A stretch of DNA of 64,000 nucleotides, taken from positions 230,338-294,337 of the forward strand of contig NZ_LMQL01000013.1 in assembly GCF_001424545.1 (NCBI RefSeq), in the 5' to 3' direction. Below the pieces are notes generated by a model. That model had not been told where the DNA came from. It saw only the letters and a list, made by a program, of their open reading frames with translations, and made no database searches. The translations under genes were made by a program, and so were the position numbers. Source of the DNA: Ramlibacter sp. Leaf400 (GTDB lineage Bacteria; Pseudomonadota; Gammaproteobacteria; Burkholderiales; Burkholderiaceae_C). Below, piece after piece: positions 3,782 through 25,513 of the stretch (within the stretch, counting starts at the first letter, position 1; the number at the start of each line of letters is the position of its first letter).

Positions 3782-3961
3782 TCAGTCGATCAGGCGGTCG
3801 GCGATGAGCACGGCGAAGAAGCCCAGCGCCGCGATGATCGTCCACTTGAGCGTGGCCAGGCCCATGCGCTTGTAGCGCGGCTGGCCGGTGTAGGCGTACA
3901 GGGCGAACTGCACGGCCGCCGCCAGCAGGAGCAGCAGGACCGCAACGCGGACGAAGGCCAT
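3782..3961 (-). CDS. Small two-helix membrane protein
   Basis: 59 residues from ATG 3961, which lies 10 bases after the lpxC stop; a longer frame would overlap lpxC. There are two predicted membrane helices (about residues 4-22 and 36-55) separated by a short Gly-Gln-Pro-Arg-Tyr-Lys-Arg loop. I do not recognise a named family. Its position as the last gene after lpxC on the same strand suggests co-transcription with lpxC, but nothing in the sequence shows its function. Confidence 0.65.
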   Translation of the reverse strand: MAFVRVAVLLLLLAAAVQFALYAYTGQPRYKRMGLATLKWTIIAALGFFAVLIADRLID

Positions 3962-3971
3962 CGGGCGGCGA

Positions 3972-4895
3972 CTACCAGGCGCGGGCAAGCTGCCCGAAGC
4001 CGGCCGGCGCCTGCCGCTCGTCCTCGAACGTCACCACTTCCCAGGCGTCGCGCTGGGCCAGGAGGGCGCGCAGCAGCTTGTTGTTCATCGCGTGACCGGA
4101 GCGGAACGCGTTGTAGGCCGCCAGCATCGGCTTGCCCAGCAGGTACAGGTCGCCCATGGCGTCGAGGATCTTGTGCTTGACGAACTCGTCCTCGTAGCGC
4201 AGGCCCTCGGTGTTGAGGACGCGGTAGTCGTCCATCACGATGGCGTTGTCCATGCCACCGCCCAGGGCCAGGCCGTTGGCCCGCATCATCTCCACGTCCT
4301 TGGTGAAGCCGAACGTGCGGGCGCGGGCGATGTCGCGCTGGTAGTTGTCCTGGCCCAGGTCGAACACCACGCGCTGGCCGGTGGAATCGACCACCCGGTG
4401 GGAAAAGACGATCTCGAAGCTGAGCTTGTAGCCGTGGTAGGGCTCCAGTCGCGCCCACTTGAGCGCCTCGCCCTCGCCTTCGCGCACCTCGACCGGCTTG
4501 AGCACGCGGATGAAGCGCCGCGGCGCCTTCTGCACCTCGATGCCCGCGCTCTGCAGCAGGAACACGAACGAGGACGACGAGCCGTCCAGGATCGGCACTT
4601 CCTCGGCGGTGATGTCGATGTAGAGGTTGTCCAGGCCGAGGCCGGCGCAGGCCGACATCAGGTGTTCGACCGTGTGCACCTTCACCGCGCCGTTGGAGAC
4701 CGTGGAGGCCAGGCGCGTGTCGGTCACCGCTTCGGCGGACACCGGGATGTCCACCGGCTGGGGCAGGTCGACGCGGCGGAACACGATGCCGGTGTCCGGC
4801 CGTGCGGGCCGCAGGGTGAGTTCCACCCGCTGGCCGCCGTGCAGCCCCACGCCCACCGCGCGGGTGAGGGTCTTGAGCGTTCGCTGGGCCAGCAT
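3972..4895 (-). CDS. lpxC: UDP-3-O-acyl-N-acetylglucosamine deacetylase LpxC
   Basis: 307 residues (E. coli 305) from ATG 4895, beginning [21 protein letters not shown] as in other LpxC proteins; the extra upstream frame lacks family similarity. Zinc ligands are visible: His in HTVEHLMSA, and His and Asp in [10 protein letters not shown]. The C-terminal GHAMNNKLL helix is also present. LpxC performs the first committed step of lipid A synthesis in the cytosol. It closes the dcw cluster as in most gammaproteobacteria and betaproteobacteria. A hairpin separates it from ftsZ, so it probably also has its own promoter in the 87 bases upstream (an A/T-rich TTAAAA lies just before the start). Confidence 0.97.
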
Positions 4896-4982
4896 GGGAC
4901 CGATTTTAAGACCGCGTCCCTGTTGGGCCGTCCCGTGCGCGCCTATTCCCGCGATAGCCGCGGTCCGGCGCCAGGCCGATGA

Positions 4983-5006
4983 GAAAGGGCCCTTGCGGGC
5001 CCTTTC
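4983..5006 (-). terminator. Stem-loop after ftsZ
   Basis: Perfect 10-bp stem GAAAGGGCCC / GGGCCCTTTC with a four-base loop, lying 25 bases after the ftsZ stop and before lpxC. On the minus strand the descending arm ends TTTCTC, only a short T-rich tail, so it is likely an intrinsic terminator or attenuator of moderate strength that sets lpxC expression apart from ftsZ. Confidence 0.7.
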
Positions 5007-5030
5007 CTTGCTCGACGTGTCCAAGGGGGC

Positions 5031-6278
5031 TCAGTCCGCCTGCTTGCGCAGGAAGGCCGGGATCTCGAAGTCGTCCATCCCGCCGGAGCTCAGCGCGTCG
5101 ACCTTGGCCGCCGCCTGCGTGCGGTTGGTTCGCCACACGCTGGGCACCGTCAGGCCGCCGTAGTCCGGCTGCTGGGGCGCGGACACGCCCTGCATCTCGC
5201 GGGTGACGATGCCGGCCGAGCTGGCCACGGCCTGGTTGAGCGTCGGCACGTTGAACGGCACGTTGTCGGTGCCGGTGCGCAGCACCTGCAGCGGGGGCGC
5301 CGTGCGGCGCTGCTGGCCCTGGCGCGACAGGCCGGTGGCCACCACCGTGACGCGCACCTCGTCGCCGAGGTTGTCGTCGTAGGCCGTGCCGTAGATGACG
5401 TGGGCATCGGGCGAAGCGTAGGCGCGGATGGTGTTCATCGCCAGCTTGGACTCGGCCAGCTTCAGGCTGCCCTTGGCCGCGGTGATCAGCACCAGCACGC
5501 CCTTGGCCCCCGACAGGTCGATGCCGTCCAGCAGCGGGCAGGCCACGGCCTGCTCGGCGGCGATGCGCGCGCGGTCCGGGCCCTCGGCGACCGCCGTGCC
5601 CATCATGGCCTTGCCCGGCTCGCCCATCACGGTGCGCACGTCCTCGAAGTCCACATTGACGTGGCCGGGGACGTTGATGATCTCCGCGATGCCGCCCACG
5701 GCGTTCTTGAGCACGTCGTTGGCGTGCGCGAACGCCTCGTCCTGGGTGATGTCGTCGCCCAGCACCTCGAGCAGCTTCTCGTTGAGCACCACGATCAGCG
5801 AATCGACGTTGGCCTCCAGCTCCATCAGGCCCTGGTCGGCGTTGGTCATGCGACGGCCGCCCTCCCAGTCGAACGGCTTGGTCACCACGCCCACGGTGAG
5901 GATGCCCATCTCCTTGGCGATGCGCGCGATGACCGGCGCCGCGCCGGTGCCGGTGCCGCCGCCCATGCCGGCGGTGATGAACAGCATGTGCGCGCCGTCG
6001 ATCGCCTCGCGGATGCTCTCGGTCGCCGCCTCGGCCGCGTCACGCCCGCGATCGGGCTTGCCGCCGGCGCCCAGGCCGTTGTTGCCCAGCTGGATCGTCT
6101 TGTGCGCCGGGCTGCGCGCGAGGGCCTGCGCATCGGTGTTGGCGCAGATGAACTCCACGCCCTGCACCGAGCGGAAGATCATGTGCTCCACCGCGTTGCC
6201 ACCACCGCCACCCACGCCGATCACCTTGATCTGGGTGCCCAGGTGGAACTCTTCCACTTCGATCATTTCGATGCTCAT
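5031..6278 (-). CDS. ftsZ: Cell division protein FtsZ
   Basis: 415 residues, slightly longer than E. coli FtsZ (383), mainly in the variable C-terminal linker. GTP-binding elements are clear: IGVGGGGGNAV near residue 20 and the tubulin signature GGGTGTGAAPV near residue 110, followed by the T7 region with NVDFEDVRTVM. The extreme C terminus DDFEIPAFLRKQ is the conserved peptide that binds FtsA and ZipA. FtsZ polymerises into the cytokinetic ring. A strong ribosome site (AGAAGGAG) precedes the ATG. The 150-base gap to ftsA is the longest within the ftsQAZ segment and may hold an extra ftsZ promoter. Confidence 0.99.
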   Translation of the reverse strand: MSIEMIEVEEFHLGTQIKVIGVGGGGGNAVEHMIFRSVQGVEFICANTDAQALARSPAHKTIQLGNNGLGAGGKPDRGRDAAEAATESIREAIDGAHMLFITAGMGGGTGTGAAPVIARIAKEMGILTVGVVTKPFDWEGGRRMTNADQGLMELEANVDSLIVVLNEKLLEVLGDDITQDEAFAHANDVLKNAVGGIAEIINVPGHVNVDFEDVRTVMGEPGKAMMGTAVAEGPDRARIAAEQAVACPLLDGIDLSGAKGVLVLITAAKGSLKLAESKLAMNTIRAYASPDAHVIYGTAYDDNLGDEVRVTVVATGLSRQGQQRRTAPPLQVLRTGTDNVPFNVPTLNQAVASSAGIVTREMQGVSAPQQPDYGGLTVPSVWRTNRTQAAAKVDALSSGGMDDFEIPAFLRKQAD

Positions 6279-21977: not shown

Positions 21978-22406
21978 TCAGAAAGAGAAATCCTTGAAGA
22001 CGTCGGGCATCTGTCCGCGCATCGCTTCGGCCTCCTTGGCCTCGTACGTGGCCTTGTCCCAGAGTTCGAAGTGGTTGCCCATGCCCAGCAGCATGGTCTC
22101 GCGCTCGATGCCGGCGGCGGCGCGCAGTTCAGGAGAGACGAGAACGCGGCCGGTGCCATCGAGCTCGACGTCCATCGCGTTGCCCATGAAGATTCTCTTC
22201 CACCACTGGGCGTCCATCGGTAACGCTGCGATACGGTCGCGAAATTTTTCCCATTCGGGTCGCGGGAAGATCATCAGGCAGCCGTGTGGATGGCGCGTGA
22301 TCGTGATCTGGTTGTTCGCCGTCGCCGAGATGACGTCGCGGTGCCGGGTCGGCACGGACAGCCGACCTTTGGCATCGAGACTGACGGACGAAGCGCCCTG
22401 GAACAC
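21978..22406 (-). CDS. mraZ: Transcriptional regulator MraZ
   Basis: 142 residues when read from GTG 22406, which aligns [19 protein letters not shown] with the family start MFRGA..NLDSKGRLSVP. An ATG 12 codons upstream (22442) is possible but has no ribosome site and adds unlike sequence. Two SpoVT/AbrB-type repeats are visible, each with a D-x-K/G-R core (DAKGRLSVP and [15 protein letters not shown]). MraZ forms a ring oligomer that binds tandem repeats before its own gene and represses the dcw operon; matching repeats are present just upstream. Confidence 0.94.
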
Positions 22407-22458
22407 CGTTGGACCTGCTGGGTTGTGGACCGGTGCAAACATGGGCTGCGAAGGCAGC

Positions 22459-22490
22459 TTTCACCACTTAATTGCACTTTTTTGCACTGT
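22459..22490 (-). promoter_or_regulatory. MraZ operator: three AGTG repeats at 10-bp spacing
   Basis: On the minus strand AGTG(C/G) occurs at 22488, 22478 and 22468, exactly one helical turn apart (AGTGCAAAAA, AGTGCAATTA, AGTGGTGAAA). Tandem short repeats of this sort before mraZ are the known binding sites of MraZ, whose ring-shaped oligomer contacts successive repeats. The array begins inside the proposed -10 element, a placement suited to repression. Confidence 0.8.
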
Positions 22491-22513
22491 AGCAGGAATC
22501 GCTTGGAGCGCAA
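22486..22513 (-). promoter_or_regulatory. Candidate promoter of the dcw cluster
   Basis: Minus-strand TTGCGC (22513-22508), a 16-base spacer and TACAGT (22491-22486) resemble a weak sigma-70 promoter, with the -10 element touching the first MraZ repeat. The match to consensus is only 3/6 and 4/6, so the position is an inference mainly supported by its relation to the operator. Confidence 0.4.
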
Positions 22514-22684
22514 GCTGGCGGCTGTGCGAAATTCCCAATGAAATCAATCACTTACAGCAGTTTTTTGAGCTCTTCGGCAACCAAAACCGCCTTAAATCAA
22601 CGACTTAGCTGAGCCTATGAAAGTGGTGCATGAAGCCCAGCGGAGCTTTTGTCAGGGGATGTAGCCCAATCAGTCGACCTCGAT

Positions 22685-24094
22685 TCACTGCGGCCGGCCC
22701 GCGTCGATCCAGGACTGGGTGTCGCGCATCGCCAGCCGGTAGCGCGCGCAGTTGAACGCCGCAAGGGCCTTCAGTTCGGCTTCCAGGAGGCGGCGAAACT
22801 TCTCCCTGTCGGGGTCCGGCAGAGCCAGGCCGGCGATGGCGTCCGCGACGGATCCGCGGTCCCGCACGATCTTCTGCACGGCCTCGTTCAGGGTTTCGCG
22901 ATTGCGGATCCTGAATGGATCGGGCGATCCCATCGCCTCGAGCACGACCTTGTACCTGGCCTGCGAACGGCGGTAGGTCCAGCTGAACAGGTCGACCGCC
23001 ATCGAGACGTCGCGGAACTCGTACACGCCCATCATGGCCAGCGCGTAGTCTTCCCGCTCGACGCCGAGGAAGGACAGCGGCGCGTGGTTGTGGAGCATCA
23101 GCGGGACGTTGGCCGCCAGGCGACTGACGCGCTTGTTGCCATCCTCGAAAGGCTGCAGGTACGCGAGGTTGACCCAGAGGAAAAAGGCCGCCTCCACCGG
23201 GTTCCGGATGTGCCTGGCCGTCTCGATGATGCGGACGAACATTTCCTCCAGCAGTTGCGGGGACTGCGTGGGCACGTATGCGGTGCCGCTGATGTTCACC
23301 ACCTTTTCGCGGATCGCGCCCAGTGCATTGGCGTCCATCAGCAGGTCCTGCATCAGGACCGCGTGCAGGTTGCGAAGCAGGCCGCTGCTGAGGCCTTGCG
23401 TGGGTGCCGCATCGACCAGGAATTCGATGGCCGCCTTGTGGTTGAGCAGCATGACGGCATCCGCGTCGGTGGCGGGCTCGCCGCTCTTGAACAGCTGCTC
23501 GGTGTCCAGCAGGGTGTAGCGGTTGCCCTCCAGGTGCGAGGACGACCAGGACAGGTCGATGAGCAACTGCTCCAGGACCTTGCGCGCATAGGTTCCCGCG
23601 GGCATCTGCTCGGGCAGCCGGCCGATGTCGGCCAGTTCATCCGCGAGATCGCGAGGCAGCAGGAAGCTTTCGTTGGGCCTGTAGTCGTCGACGAAAGCGC
23701 GCCGGTAGGTGACGGGGTCGCGTGCGGTGAGAGGGACCACCAGGCGCTGCCTGAGAGCGAGAGCGGCCTGACTCCAGGGCGGACTCACCCGCTCCTGCCG
23801 CACCGGCGTCAGGGCCGCGGCGGGGATGGGCTCCCCCGCCCGGTGCGGCGCAGGCAAGCTCGCCACCTCTGCAGCGTGTGCCGTACGCAGGCGGTACCTC
23901 GTGGCCCTCGCCTGCCCGAACTGCTCGACCGCTCCGCTTTCAACGATCCGCGGGAGCACCCGCTTCATCGCCGAAGCGCTCGCCCCGGTCTCCTTCACGA
24001 GCTCAGCCGCCGTGAAGTCGGGCAGCCCCCGTCCGGCCAAGGCGGAAGCGGCCTCGAGCAGACGGGTTTCGGTGAGAAGGGGCGGACGGGGCAT
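22685..24094 (-). CDS. Fic-family protein with winged-helix domain; catalytic His replaced by Gln
   Basis: 469 residues. Residues ~1-70 form a helix-turn-helix/winged-helix (FTAAELVKETGASASAMKRV). Residues ~165-345 are a Fic domain with an N-terminal inhibitory-helix motif S-x-x-x-E-G-N (residues 185-191, SHLEGN). The Fic core, normally HxFx(D/E)GNGRxxR, reads QPFEDGNKRVSR (residues 314-325): Asn, Lys/Arg and the final Arg are kept but the catalytic His is Gln. Fic enzymes transfer AMP or other groups to protein hydroxyls, and His is the base. This protein may be inactive, use different chemistry, or act as a DNA-binding regulator; I recall related Fic proteins that share the Gln. It is a lone gene between mraZ and hslU, with palindromes in its promoter, suggesting acquisition and self-regulation. 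Confidence 0.88.
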   Translation of the reverse strand: MPRPPLLTETRLLEAASALAGRGLPDFTAAELVKETGASASAMKRVLPRIVESGAVEQFGQARATRYRLRTAHAAEVASLPAPHRAGEPIPAAALTPVRQERVSPPWSQAALALRQRLVVPLTARDPVTYRRAFVDDYRPNESFLLPRDLADELADIGRLPEQMPAGTYARKVLEQLLIDLSWSSSHLEGNRYTLLDTEQLFKSGEPATDADAVMLLNHKAAIEFLVDAAPTQGLSSGLLRNLHAVLMQDLLMDANALGAIREKVVNISGTAYVPTQSPQLLEEMFVRIIETARHIRNPVEAAFFLWVNLAYLQPFEDGNKRVSRLAANVPLMLHNHAPLSFLGVEREDYALAMMGVYEFRDVSMAVDLFSWTYRRSQARYKVVLEAMGSPDPFRIRNRETLNEAVQKIVRDRGSVADAIAGLALPDPDREKFRRLLEAELKALAAFNCARYRLAMRDTQSWIDAGRPQ

Positions 24095-24205
24095 ATCGGC
24101 TCGCGTATCGAACCGATTTTAACAAGTTTCGATCCGATATCAAATATCAGATCGAATTACTTTGAACTGATCCGAACTGATATCCGATTTCGAACCGATA
24201 TTCAG
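24095..24205 (-). promoter_or_regulatory. Palindrome-rich operator region of the Fic gene
   Basis: This AT-rich stretch between the Fic gene and hslU stands out from ~67% GC surroundings. It contains ATCGG-N13-CCGAT (24095-24117), a 10-3-10 palindrome GATCCGATAT/ATATCAGATC with one mismatch (24131-24153), two direct copies of GAACTGAT (24164 and 24175), and ATATC-N12-GATAT near 24181-24202. The recurring unit is ATATCGG or GATCCGA. Several copies of one half-site before a gene with a winged-helix domain suggest autoregulation. Confidence 0.65.
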
Positions 24206-24211
24206 CAGGCG

Positions 24212-25513
24212 CTAGAGGATGTACCGGGACAAGTCTTCGTCGCGGCTGAGCGCGCCAAGCCGCGCGTCGACGTACGCGGCATCGATGGTGACGGTCTGCC
24301 CGTCCAGCCGGGTGGCCTCGAAACTCACCTCGTCCAGTAGCCGCTCCATCACGGTGGCGAGGCGGCGGGCACCGATGTTCTCGGTGCGCTCGTTCACCTC
24401 GTAGGCGATGTGGGCCAGCCGTGTGATGCCCTCGGGCGTGAATGCCAGCTGCACGTTCTCGGTGGCAAGCAGTGCCTGGTATTGCTTGACCAGCGAGGCG
24501 TGGGTGCTCGTGAGGATGGCCTCGAAGTCCTGCACCGACAGCGACTGCAGTTCCACGCGGATCGGCAGGCGGCCCTGCAGCTCGGGGATGAGGTCACTGG
24601 GCCGGGACAGGTGGAAGGCGCCGCTGGCGATGAACAGGATGTGGTCGGTGCGCACCGGCCCGTACTTGGTCGACACGGTGGTGCCCTCCACCAGCGGCAG
24701 CAGGTCGCGCTGCACGCCCTGGCGCGAGACGTCGGCCCCGGCGTGCTCGGCGCGCGAGGCCACCTTGTCGATCTCGTCGATGAAGACGATGCCGTTCTGC
24801 TCGGCGCTCTGGATCGCCTGAGCCTTGATCTCGTCCTCGTTGACCAGGCGGCCCGCCTCCTCCTCGACCAGCAGCTTCATCGCTTCAGCGATCTTGAGCT
24901 TGCGCGTCCTGCGGCGCTGGCCGCCGAACTGGGAGAACAGGCCGCGCAGCTGCTCGGTCATCTCCTCCATGCCGGCCGGCCCCATCACCTCCAGCTGCGG
25001 GCGCGCCTCGGCGACGTCGATGTCGATCTCCTTGTCGTCGAGCTGGCCCTCGCGCAGCTTCTTGCGGAACGACTGCCGGGCCGTGCTGTCGGCGGCCACG
25101 CCGGGCACCAGCACGTCGAGGATGCGGTCCTCCGCGGCGTCCTCGGCGCGGGAGCGCACCTTGCGCATCTCGGCCACGCGGGTCTGCTTGACGGCGATCT
25201 CGGCCAGGTCGCGGACGATCGAGTCCACGTCCTTGCCGACGTAGCCGACCTCGGTGAACTTGGTCGCCTCCACCTTGATGAAGGGCGCGTCCGCCAGGCG
25301 AGCCAGCCGGCGCGCGATCTCGGTCTTGCCTACGCCGGTGGGCCCGATCATCAGGATGTTCTTGGGCGTGATCTCGGGACGCAGCTTCTCGTCCACCTGC
25401 TGGCGGCGCCAGCGGTTGCGCAGGGCGATGGCCACGGCCCGCTTGGCATCGGCCTGGCCGACGATGTGGCGGTCCAGTTCGGACACGATCTCCTGGGGGG
25501 TCATGCTGCTCAC
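24212..25513 (-). CDS. hslU: ATP-dependent protease ATPase subunit HslU
   Basis: 433 residues (E. coli 443). The frame starts at GTG 25513, overlapping the hslV stop and giving [20 protein letters not shown] like the E. coli start; ATG 25504 is an alternative. Walker A is [15 protein letters not shown] and Walker [11 protein letters not shown]; the pore motif is GYVGKDV. The I domain follows (about residues 110-220), and the protein ends SRYIL, the C-terminal tail that docks on HslV. HslUV is a proteasome-like quality-control protease. Confidence 0.98.

What the first reader, a model, noticed from the sequence alone, without database searches (positions are those of the whole stretch)
22685..24205. 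Fic-family gene with a lost catalytic histidine and its own operator array, wedged between mraZ and hslU
The Fic core reads QPFEDGNKRVSR, so the catalytic His is Gln while Asn, Lys/Arg and the inhibitory SxxxEGN motif remain. The protein starts with a winged helix and the gene is preceded by a markedly AT-rich block of palindromes. Together these suggest a DNA-binding Fic protein that regulates itself, possibly without AMPylation. Fic proteins are otherwise known as AMP or phosphocholine transferases with a His base. The location next to two conserved operons suggests insertion by horizontal transfer.
Basis: partly seen in the sequence, partly recalled or inferred. Interest (0 to 1): 0.75.

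Follow-up and report, generated by a model that had tools for sequence, protein, structure and literature searches.

The report
Self-silencing His-less Fic gene with operators
A lone, inserted bacterial gene encodes a DNA-binding protein fused to a Fic enzyme domain whose usual catalytic histidine is a glutamine; it and many of its relatives carry a private row of repeated DNA sites before their own start, which suggests a clade of one-gene, self-silencing modules.

Summary
Window 22685-24094 (minus) encodes a 469-aa protein: an ArsR-like winged helix (about 9-70), a linker, and a Fic domain with core QPFEDGNKRVSR and SSHLEGN. The interpretation needs changes. The Gln is not a local loss: 125 of 125 distinct proteins with a readable core, the window's own included, have it. 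In a sampled tree Gln- and His-Fics fall on opposite sides of one branch. A His-to-Gln Fic clade, 'D2', was described in 2015 (PMC4454073). The upstream block is an operator-like array: seven sites, four within one mismatch of the consensus, a closeness found nowhere else in the window; the genome's 3 exact core matches all lie there. It covers the only sigma-70-like promoter in the stretch scanned. Many relatives have arrays with other motifs; same-strand sites are phased at 10-11 or 19-21 bp. No neighbour gene is widely shared, and the hslU-mraZ gap lacks the gene in 18 of 23 same-genus loci. Best reading: a one-gene, self-repressing Fic module whose pocket no longer uses His chemistry. Autorepression is well supported by sequence; the Fic domain's role is inferred. 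A self-repressing His-Fic (CccR) is known. New variant of a known kind.

The parts
22685..24094 (-). Q-Fic gene: N-terminal winged helix (residues about 9-70), low-confidence linker (81-98), Fic domain (about 109-390), C-terminal helices (393-464)
23861..24094 (-). part encoding residues 1-78 with the winged helix; recognition helix 40-52, Lys44
24189..24201 (-). operator-like site ATATCGGTTCGAA (0 mismatches to ATATCRGNTCGAA)
24171..24183 (-). operator-like site ATATCAGTTCGGA (1 mismatch)
24161..24173 (-). operator-like site GGATCAGTTCAAA (3 mismatches), overlaps the one before by 3 bp
24144..24156 (+). operator-like site ATATCAGATCGAA (0 mismatches), opposite orientation
24128..24140 (-). 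operator-like site ATATCGGATCGAA (0 mismatches), overlaps the -35 hexamer and the spacer
24107..24119 (-). operator-like site AAATCGGTTCGAT (2 mismatches), overlaps the -10 hexamer
24093..24105 (+). operator-like site ATATCGGCTCGCG (2 mismatches), overlaps the start codon
24116..24143 (-). sigma-70-like promoter TTGATA-16-TAAAAT, the only one found in 22430-24300 (mean 0.2 in shuffles)
22664..24211 (-). approximate inserted unit of about 1.55 kb; TACATCCYCTRR, the end of hslU, is found at both borders (24212-24223 and 22652-22663)

Best explanation
A one-gene, self-silencing Fic module. Step 1 (strong sequence evidence, not bench-shown): the N-terminal ArsR-like winged helix binds its own array of sites and blocks its only visible promoter by covering -35, -10 and start codon; many sites, phased where they lie on one strand, suggest cooperative, oligomeric binding. 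Step 2 (sequence-shown within limits): the module stands alone, with no widely shared partner gene beside it, and its exact operator core occurs nowhere else in the genome, so the protein appears to control only itself. Step 3 (inferred): the Fic pocket still binds a nucleotide or a related ligand, because Asp318, Asn320, Lys321, Arg322, Arg325 and the inhibitory Ser185/Glu189/Gly190 are invariant in the alignment, but with Gln314 in place of the base it does not use His chemistry. It then acts as a ligand-gated switch, or as an effector by binding rather than AMPylation, and ligand state or a partner (for instance a phage product) releases the repression.
For: Own array above all shuffles and across the only promoter found. 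Arrays in the family: 36 of 45 loci at 50% identity or more and 19 of 57 below exceed all 40 shuffles; all 102 upstream regions against 275 of other ORFs in the same loci, Mann-Whitney p 4e-25 (94 rows without those under 36% identity and one short one, p 8e-29); later-fetched loci 22 of 26, or 15 of 19 after dropping 7 duplicates or near-duplicates. 30 His-Fic upstream regions: counts 2-6, 23 of them 3-4. Same-strand spacings up to 45 bp: 91 of 203 are 10-11 bp and 76 of 203 are 19-21 bp; without eight hand-picked tandem-like arrays 37 and 73 of 143. Motif differs by clade; recognition-helix residue 44 Lys goes with a purine before GCTCA-like cores (22 of 22), Arg with a pyrimidine (8 of 9, 1 tie). 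Private: the 3 exact TCGANCYGATAT matches in 4.59 Mb all lie in the array. Solitary: no neighbour cluster spans more than 9 of 108 loci, at scattered positions. Pocket residues including Q314 invariant in 79 of 79 chosen rows. Gln- and His-Fics separate on one branch, 100/98, in 63 chosen rows. Fold: FICD with ADP, Z 24.1 over 233 residues. Precedent: CccR represses its own promoter (PMC9755527, passages).
Against: No binding, expression or ligand data. 47 of 102 first-set loci do not exceed every shuffle. Neighbouring sites on opposite strands are not phased (108 spacings, R 0.22, 752 of 1000 random sets as high). Helix-operator covariation beyond kinship is absent within the clade at 50% identity or more (partial Mantel 0.004, 470 of 1000 permutations as high); it comes from the more distant rows (0 of 1000) and all rows together (0 of 1000; 1 of 1000). 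The Lys/Arg rule is post hoc, leaves out rows with under 4 cores (among them L032, Arg with 3 purines of 3), and the tree needs only 2 changes. Distant Gln-Fics L101-L103 have a similar winged helix but no array, L104, L107 and L109 have none either, and L041 lacks most of the N terminus while two cores remain upstream. Asp318 is Asn in L065, which was left out of the alignment. Nucleotide binding is inferred from residues and fold only.
Confidence: 0.6

Rival explanations
1. Active single-gene toxin or phage-defence effector: the Q-Fic pocket still catalyses a transfer or removal reaction with Gln or another residue, and autorepression merely keeps the dose low, as in toxin-antitoxin operons.
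For: Profile similarity to phage-defence-candidate PDC-S04 (2.6e-15) and SoFic (3.6e-15) models of PADLOC; Sofic is reported as an abortive-infection AMPylase (PMC12249575, abstract); nearly invariant pocket; plasmid copies and copies on contigs classed as viral (13 loci); sporadic presence (25 of 147 genomes, own included).
Against: The usual base is missing in 125 of 125; EfFIC H111A lost deAMPylation and CccR H192A lost AMPylation. No widely shared neighbour gene, so no sign of a fixed defence context; neighbours were not scanned with a defence library.
Confidence: 0.27
2. Pure transcriptional regulator: the Fic fold is a dead scaffold for oligomerisation and the gene is a self-maintaining, nearly neutral unit.
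For: Private operators, no second target cluster, no shared partner; missing base.
Against: Invariance of Q314, N320, K321, R322, R325, S185 and E189 in 79 of 79 rows points to a used pocket. A Ramlibacter copy that lost both winged helix and array keeps an open Fic domain at 68.5% identity.
Confidence: 0.1
3. The arrays are iteron- or centromere-like sites used for replication control or partition, with autorepression as a by-product.
For: 10-bp direct repeats, some in long rows (L019, L026).
Against: No motor, replication or partition gene is widely shared beside it; the window copy sits between two conserved housekeeping genes and its sites cover promoter elements.
Confidence: 0.03

Closest known systems
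Fic/Doc clade D2 of Khater and Mohanty 2015 (PMC4454073; section 6 read, passages elsewhere)
   Same: Core motif Qx[FY]x[DE][GV]NKR with Gln for the catalytic His; function unknown
   Different: The authors call its 45 members usually single-domain and mention no operators in the section read; here the 79 aligned rows have an N-terminal stretch aligned with the winged helix and arrays are described. Whether the present protein belongs to their clade was not tested by a tree with their sequences
CccR of Yersinia pseudotuberculosis (PMC9755527, abstract and passages read)
   Same: Fic domain and HTH in one chain; represses its own promoter through a palindrome near -35 and -10; class II inhibitory motif
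   Different: HTH is C-terminal, His192 is present and needed, it AMPylates FtsZ and is secreted; no phased multi-site array in the passages seen
SoFic of Shewanella / Sofic defence proteins (PMC12249575 abstract; PDB 3zcn, 3eqx)
   Same: Fic fold, Z 22.4 (3zcn, rmsd 5.5) and 22.2 (3eqx, rmsd 6.2)
   Different: AMPylating toxin by the abstract; winged helix C-terminal in the S. oneidensis structure (PMC2686095 passage); an antitoxin AS1 is reported
HipH/YjjJ kinases (PMC8262856, passages read)
   Same: Solitary gene, toxin-like enzyme domain with an N-terminal HTH that might be a cis-acting antitoxin; weak profile match over residues 26-114 (E 9e-4)
   Different: HipA-type kinase domain, not Fic

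Membership tests
Fic/Doc (Fido) fold family, PF02661 | Fic domain profile and fold | tested here: met
   E 4.1e-12, 47.2 bits over the 24-bit cut-off; 79 of 79 rows match; Z 24.1 to FICD
Canonical AMPylating Fic | Catalytic His at motif position 1, HxFx[DE]GN[GK]R | tested here: not met
   Gln in 125 of 125 distinct readable cores, own included
Canonical AMPylating Fic | AMP transfer to a protein hydroxyl | not testable with these tools
   Needs biochemistry
Class II Fic (inhibitory helix N-terminal to the motif) | [ST]xxxE[GN] before the Fic motif | tested here: met
   SSHLEGN at 185-191; S185, E189, G190, N191 invariant in 79 of 79 rows; SxxxEGN in 113 of 113 distinct proteins of 420-520 aa
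Clade D2 (His-to-Gln Fic) | Qx[FY]x[DE][GV]NKR | tested here: met
   QPFEDGNKR; in relatives the G/V position is also I, C or M in 11 of 125
Clade D2 (His-to-Gln Fic) | Grouping with the published clade in a tree | not tested
Autoregulated HTH-Fic (CccR-like) | HTH in the same chain and operator-like sites over its own promoter | tested here: met
   Model and profiles; array and promoter by sequence; binding not tested
Autoregulated HTH-Fic (CccR-like) | C-terminal HTH and active His | tested here: not met
   HTH N-terminal, Gln314
Type II toxin-antitoxin (phd-doc, FicTA) | Separate antitoxin gene beside it | tested here: not met
   No widely shared neighbour among ORFs of 60 codons or more in 108 loci, flanks of 1.5 to 4 kb where the contig allowed; the three plasmid loci read have different neighbours. 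Very small genes could be missed

The most novel reading that the evidence does not exclude
The His-to-Gln Fic clade is a widespread class of one-gene, one-component modules in which a Fic pocket without the catalytic base has become the ligand sensor (or binding effector) of a repressor that oligomerises on its own rapidly re-coded, helically phased operator array and regulates nothing else. Each copy would then carry its own private regulatory code, much as temperate phages carry private repressor-operator pairs, and could be released by phage or stress signals.
Probability: 0.3. Interest if true: 0.72.

Novelty: new variant of a known kind. Interest (0 to 1): 0.52.

Why it matters
The His-to-Gln Fic clade has been listed since 2015 as possibly active with unknown function. 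Tying it to a DNA-binding domain, an operator-like array that can be read from the sequence, and a solitary gene makes its role directly testable with one protein and one promoter fragment. It would also show how a transferase fold turns into a regulator, and the many natural arrays with different motifs offer a ready data set for winged-helix recognition.

Tried and rejected
Local loss of the catalytic His or a sequencing error: rejected, Gln is found throughout. A hidden antitoxin or partner gene: none widely shared. A regulon: at one mismatch 36 single scattered hits lie outside the array, against 19 for the backward control pattern, and form no second cluster; a weak excess is not excluded, and the arrays of other genomes were not searched for targets. 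Plain tandem-repeat artefact: same-strand phasing remains in 47 arrays after leaving out eight tandem-like ones (R 0.79, null maximum 0.32). Helix-operator covariation as proof of contact: not kept as proof. The top rows (TAL effectors) have no stretch passing alone and look like summed repeats: ignored. Weak XopAC and mob_myst_B profile matches are far below their cut-offs. The phage record matches (29 records, none covering 80% of the query) look like general Fic relatives. The structure rows span mostly residues 120-389, so the winged helix and the C-terminal helices were barely tested by fold comparison. In print: searches listed no title on operator arrays of Gln-Fic proteins; I saw listings only except for the papers named, lists were capped (56: 15 of 666 papers, 57: 15 of 32, 72: 12 of 29, 31: 10 of 70), and the library lacks most subscription papers and preprints.

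Full report
Observation. The CDS at 22685-24094 on the minus strand (469 aa) lies between hslU (24212-25513) and mraZ (21978-22442), all on the same strand. Pfam finds a Fic domain (4e-12), and the core reads QPFEDGNKRVSR with SSHLEGN upstream of it. An AlphaFold2 model on a 79-row alignment has mean pLDDT 92.7 and pTM 0.75: winged helix at 9-70 with recognition helix 40-52, a low-confidence linker at 81-98, the Fic domain, then extra helices at 393-464. Its Fic part matches human FICD (Z 24.1, 233 aligned residues, rmsd 2.9) and SoFic (Z 22.4, 284 aligned, rmsd 5.5). Forty of the N termini as a profile match ArsR-type repressors (2oqg, 2e-5), and single rows match various regulator and HTH Pfam models (at most 19 of 79 rows for any one model).

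The glutamine is a clade trait. Of 131 distinct proteins read, the window's own included, 125 have a readable core and all 125 have Gln; the other 6 are fragments without the core. Two more viral loci, L182 and L183, also have it. The genome-contig search did not use the core as a search word and kept the best 80 of 151 relatives, and the whole-genome searches used the full protein or profile; the viral search did use a word with QPF. In the alignment of 79 rows, chosen from 93 full-length ones, S185, E189, G190, N191, Q314, F316, D318, N320, K321, R322 and R325 are invariant; L065, not in it, has Asn for D318. In a tree of 33 Gln and 30 His Fic domains, picked by me, the two kinds fall on opposite sides of one branch (100/98), with long branches and a warning that some joins may be false. 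The 30 His loci read are HxFxDGN[GK]R, 4 of them NKR. Khater and Mohanty described the substitution as clade D2 in 2015, 45 sequences, function unknown (PMC4454073, section 6). So the 'lost histidine' is a real difference but neither new nor local.

The upstream block is an operator-like array. Seven sites lie within 3 mismatches of ATATCRGNTCGAA, five on the minus and two on the plus strand; the four within 1 mismatch are the only such sites in the 64-kb window, while 30 sites outside have 2 or 3 mismatches. The consensus was drawn from the array itself. In the whole 4.59-Mb genome the exact pattern TCGANCYGATAT occurs 3 times, all in the array; at up to one mismatch there are 42 hits, 6 of them in the array, the other 36 scattered, against 19 for the backward control pattern. 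The only sigma-70-like promoter in 22430-24300, TTGATA-16-TAAAAT, sits at 24143-24116 inside the array, with sites across the -35 and -10 boxes. The scan found no terminator-like site in that stretch.

Arrays in the family. I counted the best 8-mer (at most 1 mismatch, both strands, no overlap) in 200 bp upstream. In the first set 55 of 102 loci exceeded all 40 dinucleotide shuffles: 36 of 45 at 50% identity or more and 19 of 57 below that. Four of the nine failures at 50% or more have a short or misplaced N terminus (L009, L023, L028, L041). Against 275 upstream regions of other ORFs in the same loci, all 102 were richer as a set (p 4e-25; 94 of them p 8e-29); related loci are not independent, so these p are optimistic. 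Thirty His-Fic upstream regions gave 2 to 6. Loci fetched later from viral contigs, a phylum sample and plasmids gave 22 of 26, or 15 of 19 after removing duplicates. Motifs differ by clade: ATCGGCTCA-, ATCAGCTCA- and ATCTGCTCA-like near the window gene, TGGCGCAA- or TTGTCGC-like in the distant clade, TCTCGCCAT-like in Akkermansiaceae. Same-strand neighbours sit 10-11 bp (91 of 203) or 19-21 bp (76 of 203) apart, still so without eight tandem-like arrays (37 and 73 of 143): one or two turns of the helix, as expected for cooperative binding along one face. Neighbours on opposite strands show no such phase (108 spacings, 752 of 1000 random sets as high).

Does the winged helix read the array? 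Operator likeness follows recognition-helix likeness after allowing for Fic-domain identity over 48 loci (partial r 0.20; 1 of 1000 permutations as high, 0 of 1000). This comes from the distant rows (17 loci, 0.47, 0 of 1000) and is absent within the near clade (31 loci, 0.004, 470 of 1000). A finer rule seen afterwards is that Lys44 goes with a purine before GCTCA-like cores (22 of 22) and Arg44 with a pyrimidine (8 of 9, one tie), counting loci with at least 4 cores; L032 (Arg, 3 cores, all purine) goes against it, and L083 and L085 have other residues. The tree needs only two changes of this residue. A Ramlibacter copy (L023, the same as L084) has lost both winged helix and array and keeps its Fic frame, which fits; L041, with a lost N terminus and two cores left, and the array-less distant L101-L104, L107 and L109 do not fit the simple picture.

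Solitary and inserted. Among up to four ORFs on each side in 108 loci no neighbour family is shared by more than 9 loci, and then at scattered positions. Three plasmid copies sit beside different genes, among them integrases and transposases. Homologues occur in 25 of 147 genomes of the relatives search at E 1e-10 and in 14 of 398 of a phylum sample at E 1e-40, the own genome included in both. hslU and mraZ lie 194 to 398 bp apart, without a Fic match, in 18 of 23 same-genus loci; in four no hslU was found in the fetched flank and one is cut at a contig end; in six loci of other genera no hslU was found. The insert is about 1.55 kb, and the end of hslU is echoed at the far border.

Mechanism. 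I take the protein as a repressor of its own gene with probability about 0.85, on the evidence above and on the CccR precedent, a His-Fic with a C-terminal HTH that represses its own promoter (PMC9755527, passages). What the Fic pocket does is inferred. The conserved acidic residue of the motif, Arg325 and the inhibitory Glu speak for a bound ligand. Loss of His abolished deAMPylation in EfFIC (PMC6408439, passages) and AMPylation and toxicity in CccR, so ordinary AMPylation is unlikely. I favour a ligand-gated switch or binding effector (0.6 for the whole reading) over an unusual active enzyme (0.27).

Novelty. Both halves have precedents: the Gln clade (2015) and the self-repressing HTH-Fic (2022); in 2009 HTH-Fic fusions were noted and the HTH was suggested to regulate expression of fic (PMC2686095, passages). 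New here, as far as the listings of searches show, are the private, phased arrays across the Gln clade and its solitary, N-terminal winged-helix plan.

Noticed in passing
24212-24223 and 22652-22663: The hslU 3' end (TACATCCYCTRR) is echoed at the far border of the insert; the two alignments to relatives L142 and L143 overlap by 8 and 10 bp there, like a short target duplication.
   Followed up: partly
22465-22488, minus strand: Three AGTG repeats at exact 10-bp spacing upstream of mraZ, with similar ones in the printed relatives; they resemble the MraZ self-operator as I recall it.
   Followed up: no
L023 (same as L084) 3959-5038: Ramlibacter copy with an open Fic domain (68.5% identity) that has lost both the winged helix and the array.
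   Followed up: partly
L101, L102, L103: Distant Q-Fics with core Q[AV]FANGNKR, no SxxxEGN match and a similar winged-helix N terminus but no array upstream; perhaps a separate subtype.
   Followed up: partly
L019 and L026 upstream regions: Long, nearly perfect 10-bp repeat rows (12 and 13 units counted) just before the gene, which look recently expanded.
   Followed up: no
G000:C10:530669-530953: A second Fic-domain match (open frame 270 aa) in the same genome, outside the window.
   Followed up: no
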